Below are positions 5,993 to 9,125 of a stretch of DNA of 64,000 nt, in pieces. Source of the DNA: Deltaproteobacteria bacterium (GTDB lineage Bacteria; Desulfobacterota; Binatia; UBA1149; JAJCZL01). The DNA is taken from the NCBI GenBank assembly GCA_029262415.1, contig JAJCZL010000067.1, forward strand, positions 62,001-126,000. Reading direction: 5' to 3'. The translations under genes and the position numbers were made by a program. The number at the start of each line of letters is the position of its first letter. Position 1 is the stretch's first letter. The notes under the pieces are model-generated. The model worked only from the letters and a program-made list of their open reading frames with translations, was not told the DNA's origin and made no database searches.

Positions 5993-6751
5993 CTACGCGG
6001 TGCCTTTCGCACGGAGAAACCCGAGATCTGCATCGGTCATTTCGACATTCTCGGCGAGGCCTTTCGCGGCCAGCAAGCGGCGCACTTCCGCGTCGAACCG
6101 CTCGATGTATTCGCGGCTGAGCGCTTTCCTGTCGGTTTCGTTAAAGCTATCTGCATGACTCGGCAACTTGAACTCGACTAAAGCAGCCAGCGTGCGGAGT
6201 GTGTTCGGAAAGTCGAAGTACCAAGGCCTTTTCTCGCCCGAACGCATGATCGTCAGCACATCGCGCGCACGCCCTTCGACGAAATCGAGAGTCACGGCTC
6301 CCGTAGAAAAACGCCGACCGCGGATCCGTGCGAGAATGCGCTCGATGGATTGAGGATCCAATTCCGAGATCTCTCTCGGCATATAGATGAAGAGACGTGG
6401 CGGGTCTTCTCCCGGCTCGGTAGCGCGTAACAGACGGGTAACGGCCGGCTCGACGAAGTTGGTAACATAGCCGTAGGCCAGCGCATCCGGCATCGTAAAT
6501 CTCTCAGCCTCGAACTCGGCCCGGCGCGCGCGGATGGTCTGCCCGTAGCTTCCTACCAGTGCACTGACCGCGACCGAAACAAGACCGAGAAGCACGGTTA
6601 TCGGTTCAGCCTCGAACGGCAACGGATACGCGACGAGCCATGCGACGCCGGCGAGGAAGGTCGCCGACCACAACAACACCTGCAGAGCGGTGCCGGCCTT
6701 CTCAACCCATGTTGTCTGGTGTTTCGCCACTGCGTTTGGAGAGCCCTGCAC
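5993..6751 (-). CDS. Orphan transmembrane STING-domain protein (TM-STING-like)
   Basis: About 252 residues. Two hydrophobic helices (about 21-42 and 50-68) precede a cytosolic domain resembling bacterial STING, the cyclic-dinucleotide sensor of CBASS. Numbering from the GTG at 6751: ALAYGYVTNFVEP (90-102) matches the first STING helix with the Asn-Phe pair (98-99); LFIYMP (120-125) is the following core strand; R161 and R163 fit the lid; FDFPNTL (179-185) has an Asp180/Thr184 pair spaced as in the c-di-GMP-binding bacterial STINGs I recall; SFNETDRKALSREYI (202-216) resembles the FSREDR helix of animal STING. The start is uncertain (GTG 6751 or 6730; no clear ribosome site). It lies 32 bp after the CPBP protease gene, probably in one operon. 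No CD-NTase, TIR or nuclease gene lies nearby. Confidence 0.75.
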   Translation of the reverse strand: MQGSPNAVAKHQTTWVEKAGTALQVLLWSATFLAGVAWLVAYPLPFEAEPITVLLGLVSVAVSALVGSYGQTIRARRAEFEAERFTMPDALAYGYVTNFVEPAVTRLLRATEPGEDPPRLFIYMPREISELDPQSIERILARIRGRRFSTGAVTLDFVEGRARDVLTIMRSGEKRPWYFDFPNTLRTLAALVEFKLPSHADSFNETDRKALSREYIERFDAEVRRLLAAKGLAENVEMTDADLGFLRAKGTA

Positions 6752-6762
6752 CGCGCAGAGTA

Positions 6763-6794
6763 GTCTAGCGAGAGGCGCACGGTCTAGCGAGAGG
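6763..6794. repeat. Tandem 13-bp direct repeat at the CPBP/STING junction
   Basis: The 13-mer GTCTAGCGAGAGG occurs at 6763-6775 and again at 6782-6794 (period 19). The second copy spans the last codons and stop of the CPBP gene, while the first lies in the short spacer before the STING-like gene. It looks like a small tandem duplication. Confidence 0.8.
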
Positions 6795-7662
6795 TGTAAC
6801 GCTGGGCGAGTACGTAAGGGATCGGCCGTCCGGCCATGAACCGGTAGCGACGAAACACTGCAATTCCCCAGGGCAGACCAATCGCCGCCGCGAGCAACCC
6901 CACATACCACTGATCCTGGAACTGCTGGAGGCTGCGTGTAGCTTCAGGATCCGCATAAGTCGATCCGATTGCGGCCATGGCGAACGCAATGGAGTTGTTG
7001 GTAAGATGCAGTACCACCGGTGCCCATATTGATCCGGTCGCGAGATAGGCAACCGCCGCCGCATAGCCGAATACAAAGCCGCCGAGCGGATCTATGTGCC
7101 AAACCGCGAAGGCGGCCGAAGACATCACGACTCCGCGCGCAGTTCCCCACTTGGTTGCCCAGCTACTCAGCAACAGACCTCGAAACGCGTATTCTTCAAC
7201 CAACGGTCCCGCGATCCCGATTGATGCGAACAATAAGAGATTGGGCAGGTCGAAGGTGATCCCGGTGGCAAGATGGCGACTCATCGCGGTCTCGACGACT
7301 AGCTCTTCGATCTTCTCGGGGTCGATGTACGAGATCGGGATGAACAGCAGGTACGCAGTGGCCAAACTGAGCGCCACGGCTGGAATCGCCCAGGCGGCAA
7401 ACGGCAATAGCCGCCGAGGAGCCACCGGAACACCGATCAGTCGTCGGTGATCAACCCGCGCGACGCGCGCGACGATGTACAACGTGAGGGCCAGCAACCC
7501 GTACCAGAGCAGTTGTGAAAGAGCCTCGTGTAGACGGTCACTGCCGGGATCGTTCGCCCACTCAGGCCACAGCGCGCGACCCAGGAGAGTAGAAATAAGC
7601 AGCGTGAGCAACACGACGACGAGAATCGTGCGGCCTCTAGGGAAGTCCGGTTGGTGTTCCAC
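6784..7662 (-). CDS. CPBP family intramembrane glutamic endopeptidase
   Basis: About 292 residues from a GTG at 7662; the frame is open to 7764 but would then collide with the divergent patatin gene. Eight or so hydrophobic helices. The three CPBP (Abi/CAAX-protease) motifs are present: EEYAFRG with paired Glu156-Glu157 and Arg161, FAVWHID with His189, and HLTNNS with His219 and Asn223. Members cleave prenylated or membrane substrates, or act in bacteriocin self-immunity; their substrates are usually unknown. The likely co-transcription with a membrane STING protein is unusual and suggests a functional pair. The start has no clear ribosome site. Confidence 0.85.
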   Translation of the reverse strand: MEHQPDFPRGRTILVVVLLTLLISTLLGRALWPEWANDPGSDRLHEALSQLLWYGLLALTLYIVARVARVDHRRLIGVPVAPRRLLPFAAWAIPAVALSLATAYLLFIPISYIDPEKIEELVVETAMSRHLATGITFDLPNLLLFASIGIAGPLVEEYAFRGLLLSSWATKWGTARGVVMSSAAFAVWHIDPLGGFVFGYAAAVAYLATGSIWAPVVLHLTNNSIAFAMAAIGSTYADPEATRSLQQFQDQWYVGLLAAAIGLPWGIAVFRRYRFMAGRPIPYVLAQRYTSR

Positions 7663-7763
7663 AGGTATCGTTTTGCGCGCGCTGATGCGCAAGCCCGGGA
7701 ATAGTAGTCCGGTACACGGGATTAGAAAACGCGGCGTTTCGTAGCTAGGATCCGCTTCCTGCA

Positions 7764-9125
7764 ATGCAAAACACGGTCCTTTTTTCGGCTCTCCTGGCTT
7801 TTGGCCTCGCCTGCTCGGGTTGCTCCACCTATTTCACGCTGAACCAGCCACTCGAGTCTTGGGACAAGGCCAGCGGTTACAGGAGTTCGCGGCGCTGGTC
7901 AGCCGAGCGATCAGATGAGCTGCTGCTCGTTTTGGCCTTCTCGGGCGGAGGCACGCGGGCCAGCGCATTCGCCTACGGCGTTCTCGAACAACTCGCCGAC
8001 ACCGAGATCGTAATTGGGGGCAAACGCCGCCGCCTACTCGACGAGGTCGATCACATCTCCGCGGTATCAGGCGGCAGCTTCACCGCGGCGTATTACGGAT
8101 TGTATGGCGATCGTATCTTCGAGGATTACGAATCTCGCTTTCTCGACCGCGACGTACAGACCAAGCTTTTGCTGAAACTCATGGCCCCGTGGAACTGGGT
8201 CCGGATGGCGTCCCCTTACTACGAGCGTGGAGACCTCGCCGCCGAGGCGTACAATGAATACCTGTTCGAAGACGCGACATACGCAGACATGATCGCTAGC
8301 CTCGGCCCCTTTATACAAATAAACGCGACCGACATCGCAACCGGCCATCCGTTTTCGTTCATCCAGGAGCAGTTCGACTTTCTGTGTTCAGACCTCGCTA
8401 GCTACCCGGTCGCACGCGCAGTTGCGGCATCCTCCGCCGTCCCCGGCGTGTTCACACCGCTTACGCTCAGGAACTTTGCAGGCAAGTGTGGCTTTGCGGC
8501 ACCCGCCTGGATCGACGAGGAGATGCGAACACCCGATGCTTTCAGCCGCGCCTATGTGAACGCGGCCAACTTAAGATCGTACCTCGACGCAGACCGTCGC
8601 CGTTACATTCGTGTCGTCGACGGCGGCATCTCCGACAATCTAGGTGTACGCGGGCCATTTGAATCGCAAGTCCTGAGCGATCCACGACAGCCGCGGCGTC
8701 CCGAGATCGTCGGCAATCTACGCAACATCGTCTTGGTTCTCGTCAACGCGGCAACGACGCCGGAGGCTGCATGGGAGAACAGCGACGTCTCGATGACGTT
8801 GAGTGCCGTTCTCCAAGACGCAACCACAGTGCAGATCAATCGTTACAGCCTGGAGACTATGGAGTTGCTGCGGAGTAACTTCGAAGCCTGGAACCGGACG
8901 GCGAGCCGGTGGAAGAGCCCGGCGCAATTTCATCTCGTTGAAGTAGATTTCACTAAGCTGTCATCAGCGGAGGAGCGCGCCTACATCAACAAACTACCCA
9001 CCAGCTTCACCCTCGGCGAGGGGGCCGTTGACCGGCTGCGCGCGGCTGCGCGCGGCCTGCTCGCAGAATCGCCTCCTTACCTCCGCTTTCTGCAATCGGT
9101 GCAGGGCGGAGAAATCACCCCGTGA
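7764..9125 (+). CDS. Patatin-like phospholipase, probable lipoprotein
   Basis: 453 residues. The N-terminus is a short signal peptide ending in LACSGC, with Cys17 or Cys20 as candidate lipidation site, so the protein should be envelope-anchored. The patatin catalytic parts are SGGGTRA (60-66, oxyanion hole), ISAVSGGS with nucleophile Ser102, and VVDGGISDN with Asp286, giving a Ser-Asp dyad lipid acyl hydrolase. The first Gly of the usual GxSxG is Ala here, as in related lipoprotein patatins. It ends in a GTGA overlap with the DUF748 gene, implying coupled translation, and is divergent from the CPBP/STING pair. The lipoprotein signal argues against a cytosolic CapV-type CBASS effector. Confidence 0.87.
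   Translation: MQNTVLFSALLAFGLACSGCSTYFTLNQPLESWDKASGYRSSRRWSAERSDELLLVLAFSGGGTRASAFAYGVLEQLADTEIVIGGKRRRLLDEVDHISAVSGGSFTAAYYGLYGDRIFEDYESRFLDRDVQTKLLLKLMAPWNWVRMASPYYERGDLAAEAYNEYLFEDATYADMIASLGPFIQINATDIATGHPFSFIQEQFDFLCSDLASYPVARAVAASSAVPGVFTPLTLRNFAGKCGFAAPAWIDEEMRTPDAFSRAYVNAANLRSYLDADRRRYIRVVDGGISDNLGVRGPFESQVLSDPRQPRRPEIVGNLRNIVLVLVNAATTPEAAWENSDVSMTLSAVLQDATTVQINRYSLETMELLRSNFEAWNRTASRWKSPAQFHLVEVDFTKLSSAEERAYINKLPTSFTLGEGAVDRLRAAARGLLAESPPYLRFLQSVQGGEITP

What the first reader, a model, noticed from the sequence alone, without database searches (positions are those of the whole stretch)
5993..6751. Orphan transmembrane STING-domain protein outside any visible CBASS operon
The C-terminal about 170 residues reproduce the bacterial STING pattern: the ALAYGYVTNF helix, the LFIYMP strand, an R-x-R pair (161, 163) and an Asp180/Thr184 pair. 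Residues I recall as c-di-GMP contacts in bacterial STING structures (Asn-Phe, Arg/Arg, Asp/Thr) all have counterparts with matching spacing. Two N-terminal helices give the TM-STING layout. Bacterial STINGs are normally encoded beside a CD-NTase; none is visible in 64 kb. The protein could sense endogenous c-di-GMP from diguanylate cyclases, or a synthase encoded elsewhere, in a role other than classical CBASS.
Basis: partly seen in the sequence, partly recalled or inferred. Interest (0 to 1): 0.9.

Follow-up and report, generated by a model that had tools for sequence, protein, structure and literature searches.

The report
Orphan membrane-anchored bacterial STING receptor
The gene encodes a real bacterial relative of the immune receptor STING, anchored by two membrane helices and with the whole ligand-binding motif intact, but it stands alone without the enzyme that normally makes its signal, and its nearest relative, in an archaeal genome, also stands alone.

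Summary
Confirmed: window 5993-6751, on the MINUS strand, encodes a 252-residue protein with two predicted N-terminal transmembrane helices and a C-terminal STING domain (Pfam prok_STING E=1.9e-14; FsSTING crystal structure 6WT4 E=2e-23). The four FsSTING ligand-contact residues named in the literature (F92, R151, R153, D169) are matched by F99, R161, R163 and D180, which makes it a class II (RxR) STING. No CD-NTase lies nearby, and none was found in the 96.8% complete genome with two profiles. The idea that it reads endogenous c-di-GMP is not supported: the only two diguanylate-cyclase domains lie on one contig of 44.5% GC in a ~61% GC genome, and such domains are absent from most order-mates. 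The closest relative (47% identity, same 2TM layout) is on an archaeal contig, again without a CD-NTase, and is a lone case among 396 searched genomes of that lineage. Of six STINGs in the window's class only one adjoins a CD-NTase. Best reading: a transferable, CBASS-unlinked TM-STING membrane effector that responds to a guanine-containing cyclic dinucleotide of unlinked or foreign origin. Ligand and activity are untested.

The parts
5993..6751 (-). TM-STING gene, 252 aa, GTG start at 6751 (alternative GTG 6730)
   Evidence: PF20300 E=1.9e-14; 6WT4 E=2.2e-23; translation
6629..6688 (-). predicted transmembrane helix 1, residues 22-41
   Evidence: Kyte-Doolittle mean up to 1.81 over 19 residues
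6545..6604 (-). predicted transmembrane helix 2, residues 50-69
   Evidence: Kyte-Doolittle mean up to 2.06 over 19 residues
6572..6625 (-). inter-helix loop and start of TM2 (PLPFEAEPITVLLGLVSV), residues 43-60, 16 of 18 identical to the archaeal homologue
   Evidence: alignment A2
6014..6496 (-). STING cyclic-dinucleotide-binding domain, residues 86-246
6455..6460 (-). Asn98-Phe99; F99 is the counterpart of base-stacking F92 of FsSTING
   Evidence: alignment, contacts from PMC8748872
6263..6271 (-). lid motif R161-A-R163, counterpart of R151-x-R153 of FsSTING, class II
6200..6214 (-). D180-FPN-T184; D180 is the counterpart of FsSTING D169
6784..7764 (-). CPBP/Rce1-type membrane protease gene, same strand, 32 bases upstream of the GTG at 6751; possible co-transcribed partner
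   Evidence: PF02517 E=2.8e-17; no full-length homologue in the order

Best explanation
It is a class II (RxR) bacterial TM-STING that works without a linked CD-NTase. Shown: homology, two predicted TM helices, intact counterparts of the ligand contacts, no CD-NTase found by the profiles used, no GGDEF on contigs of typical composition. Inferred: the cytosolic domain pairs around a guanine-containing 3'3' cyclic dinucleotide (c-di-GMP or 3'3'-cGAMP); binding drives oligomerisation; this rearranges the two-helix bundle and damages or depolarises the inner membrane, stopping the cell. The signal comes from an unlinked or foreign source (an unrecognised host cyclase, or a cyclase brought by phage, plasmid or a neighbour cell). 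In a cell with no c-di-GMP of its own such an effector can be kept safely on its own.
For: Homology to FsSTING with F99/R161/R163/D180 conserved. Same architecture and an intact frame in the archaeal homologue L002, 47% identical, also without a CD-NTase: the only SMODS hit of that genome is a 451-aa frame that I read as a CCA-adding enzyme (archaeal control genomes ring in with the same profile). The loop-TM2 segment is kept 16/18 against 46% overall, which points to a selected job for the membrane part. Own genome: one STING, no SMODS hit, no CD-NTase-like NTP_transf_2 hit. GGDEFs only on the 44.5% GC contig C32. A review states that bacterial STING and other c-di-GMP pathways rarely coexist (PMC8793285).
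Against: No experiment. How bacterial TM-STINGs act is unknown even in CBASS (PMC10732462; PMC12421889). The genome is a 96.8% complete draft; a CD-NTase could lie in the missing part or, if of clade E, escape the two profiles used. Contig C32 could be a real acquired island, in which case two GGDEF proteins are present. Sister genome G001 has GGDEFs too, though its stated contamination is 9%.
Confidence: 0.5

Rival explanations
1. Split CBASS: the receptor is an ordinary CBASS effector whose CD-NTase is encoded at another locus, missing from the draft or too divergent for the profiles.
For: G001 and G060, which also carry unlinked STINGs, have SMODS hits on other contigs; the G001 one lies beside its own patatin-like effector gene (by my reading). 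The genome is 96.8% complete. In most non-metazoan eukaryotes with STING no CD-NTase is found either (PMC10732462).
Against: No SMODS hit at E up to 1 in the own genome; G070 and G094 also have none, nor has the archaeon apart from the CCA-like hit.
Confidence: 0.22
2. Endogenous c-di-GMP sensor: the receptor reads c-di-GMP made by the cell's own diguanylate cyclases in ordinary physiology.
For: Two GGDEF proteins are in the assembly, one with an EAL-like C-terminus by eye; R161 and D180 match residues that contact guanine.
Against: Both lie on one contig of 44.5% GC with transposase-like genes in a ~61% GC genome; no GGDEF in most order-mates or in four other STING carriers of the class.
Confidence: 0.1
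3. Two-gene module: the CPBP membrane protease upstream and the STING act together, the STING switching the protease on or being cleaved by it.
For: Same strand, 32-base gap; similar GC3, 0.67 and 0.69; no full-length homologue of this protease in the 12 order-mates, so both genes are local to this genome.
Against: The archaeal homologue has no such protease beside it. Adjacent genes on one strand are common.
Confidence: 0.12
4. Relic: a leftover effector of a transferred CBASS operon that has lost its cyclase and now drifts.
For: Isolated occurrence: the only strong match in 395 genomes of the phylum sample; no cyclase.
Against: Intact frame, all ligand motifs kept, typical codon composition, and a distant homologue that is also alone yet keeps loop, TM2 and pocket.
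Confidence: 0.06

Closest known systems
FsSTING (Flavobacteriaceae sp., PDB 6WT4), class II RxR bacterial STING
   Same: About 32% identity over the domain; F/R/R/D contacts with nearly matching spacing; FDFPNTL strand
   Different: Bacterial STINGs are normally encoded next to a CD-NTase; here none is found. Ligand untested.
Bacterial TM-STING / Cap13 of CBASS
   Same: Two predicted N-terminal TM helices fused to a STING domain
   Different: No CBASS operon; a CPBP protease gene is the neighbour instead
TIR-STING / Cap12 (class I, e.g. PcSTING, SfSTING)
   Same: Shared STING domain family
   Different: No TIR domain; RxR instead of RxY/F lid motif; sequence match to 6WT5 and 8HY9 weak (E=0.02 and 0.009)
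OptE / Cap15 two-TM effectors (Panoptes, CBASS)
   Same: Two TM helices plus a cytosolic nucleotide sensor; membrane-damaging logic (PMC12657218)
   Different: Sensor is a beta-barrel, not STING; no sequence match of the TM part to PADLOC or convincing one to Pfam models

Membership tests
Bacterial STING (prok_STING, PF20300) | Sequence match to the domain over its curated cut-off | tested here: met
   54.2 bits against 27.1
Bacterial STING (prok_STING, PF20300) | V-shaped dimer with ligand pocket | tested here: inconclusive
   Both models low confidence; Foldseek match to 6WT4 only E=0.15. Homology to 6WT4 implies it.
Class II bacterial STING | RxR lid motif with stacking Phe and base-contacting Asp | tested here: met
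   F99, R161, R163, D180
Bacterial TM-STING (Cap13 type) | Two N-terminal TM helices fused to STING | tested here: met
   Hydropathy; same in L002
CBASS effector | CD-NTase in the same operon | tested here: not met
   Neighbours are CPBP protease, DUF3465, FKBP, patatin, DUF748
CBASS effector | CD-NTase anywhere in the genome | tested here: not met
   No PF18144 hit at E up to 1; two PF01909 hits, one in a 140-aa frame and one in a 948-aa frame, not CD-NTase-like; limits: draft genome, two profiles
CBASS effector | Binds a cyclic dinucleotide and causes abortive infection | not testable with these tools
   needs binding and phage assays
c-di-GMP signalling receptor | Diguanylate cyclases native to the genome | tested here: inconclusive
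   Two GGDEFs, both on compositionally foreign contig C32

The most novel reading that the evidence does not exclude
A stand-alone TM-STING that moves between bacteria and archaea as a one-gene (or protease-STING) immune sensor: carried by cells with no cyclic dinucleotide of this kind of their own, it would act as a tripwire for cyclic dinucleotides brought in by an invader or a neighbouring cell, reversing the CBASS logic in which the host makes the signal.
Probability: 0.13. Interest if true: 0.85.

Novelty: new variant of a known kind. Interest (0 to 1): 0.5.

Why it matters
Bacterial STINGs are described as CBASS effectors encoded beside their cyclase, and what the membrane part of bacterial TM-STINGs does is stated to be unknown. 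A membrane STING with an intact pocket but no cyclase, with a relative in an archaeon that is also alone, gives a small system in which ligand source and membrane action can be tested apart. It also bears on how STING became unlinked from its synthase, as it is in animals.

Tried and rejected
AlphaFold2 on the single sequence and on a two-row alignment gave unusable models, so the Foldseek search (V-ATPase stalks on top, 6WT4 at rank 16) is not used as evidence. Searches for relatives in plasmids, phages and viral contigs found none. The N-terminal 2TM part alone matched nothing convincing in PADLOC, Pfam or PDB. A longer 305-aa reading (start at 6910) was rejected because its extra N-terminus overlaps the protease gene. 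GC could not tell whether the GGDEF contigs of G001 are contaminants.

Full report
Observation. The gene lies on the minus strand, 6751 down to 5993. The translated protein has 252 residues if it starts at GTG 6751. It matches Pfam prok_STING (PF20300) with E=1.9e-14 and the crystallised Flavobacteriaceae STING, 6WT4, with E=2.2e-23. A profile of the window protein plus its archaeal relative raises this to E=4e-29, while 6WT5 and 8HY9 reach only about 4e-5 to 5e-5. It is a real STING domain.

Pocket. PMC8748872 names the FsSTING contacts: F92 (stacking), R151 and R153 (lid, RxR), D169. In the alignment these fall on F99, R161, R163 and D180 of the window protein; the spacings differ by three residues (F to R) and one (R to D). 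RxR marks class II, for which the structure discussed there holds 3'3'-cGAMP, whereas class I (RxY/F) is strict for c-di-GMP.

Membrane part. Two hydrophobic helices (about residues 22-41 and 50-69) precede the domain, the two-helix layout described for bacterial TM-STINGs (PMC10732462). That paper and PMC12421889 state that the role of this part is unclear.

Relatives. The only close relative found in the genome collection is L002, 47% identical, matched over window residues 16-251, on contig CABMIH010000042.1 titled 'uncultured archaeon'. The contig is archaeal by content: prefoldin beta and MptA GTP cyclohydrolase score above their NCBIfam cut-offs. Its STING neighbours are a CNNM/CBS protein and a DUF3368/PIN-like protein. 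Among 396 searched genomes of that lineage no other had a match. The bacterial case is also isolated: the own genome is the only strong match in 395 genomes of the phylum. Two isolated, similar proteins in two domains of life suggest horizontal transfer (inference). Between the two, residues 43-60 (PLPFEAEPITVLLGLVSV) are 16/18 identical against 46% overall.

STINGs in the class. Six of 148 class genomes carry PF20300. Only G067 has a CD-NTase beside its TIR-STING. G094 has a TIR-STING with no CD-NTase recognised by eye in the 20 kb read. G001 (same family), G070 and G060 have divergent STINGs with two, one or no evident TM helix (by eye), also unlinked. In G001 and G070 the neighbour is a Dyp-type peroxidase; the two peroxidases are 61% identical although the two STINGs share only a short match. 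This is a lead of its own.

Signal source. The own genome (3.9 Mb, 96.8% complete) has one STING, no SMODS hit and no CD-NTase-sized NTP_transf_2 hit: one lies in a 140-aa MNT-like frame, the other in a 948-aa frame. It has two GGDEF domains, both on contig C32. C32 is 44.5% GC and carries transposase-like genes; the window is 61.1% GC and the sampled contigs longer than 5 kb lie at 58-64%, apart from C50 at 54%. Of the 11 order-mates outside the family two had GGDEF matches, all weak, and none of the four STING carriers outside the family had one. No search for c-di-AMP cyclases, PilZ or EAL domains was made.

Neighbourhood. The flanking genes are ordinary: rhomboid, FKBP, DUF3465, patatin-like, DUF748, aldehyde dehydrogenase, phosphate transporter, CrcB; this is no defence island. 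Directly upstream on the same strand is a CPBP-type protease, 32 bases away. It has no full-length homologue in the 12 order-mates and none lies next to the archaeal STING, so a functional link is possible but weak.

Verdict. A genuine class II TM-STING with no CD-NTase found. How it works (ligand-driven oligomerisation acting on the membrane) is inferred from known STINGs; ligand, its source and output are untested. New variant of a known kind.

Noticed in passing
L009:8813-10548 and L011:3273-4973: Two divergent STING proteins (G001 and G070, different families) each adjoin a Dyp-type peroxidase gene; the peroxidases are 61% identical although the STINGs are barely alike. A possible STING-peroxidase association.
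   Followed up: partly
L002:2141-2911 (contig CABMIH010000042.1): TM-STING on an archaeal contig with prefoldin beta and MptA genes; I found no archaeal STING in the held papers searched.
   Followed up: partly
L016 and L055 (G000:C32, 25.8 kb): Contig of 44.5% GC with GGDEF proteins and transposase-like genes inside a ~61% GC genome: likely misbinned or a foreign island.
   Followed up: partly
L012:9370-10299: CAP12-type TIR-STING in G094 with no CD-NTase seen in the surrounding 20 kb and no SMODS hit in that genome.
   Followed up: no
window 6765-6800: Short direct repeat (CCTCTCGCTAGAC, twice) around the stop codon of the CPBP gene, between it and the STING gene.
   Followed up: no
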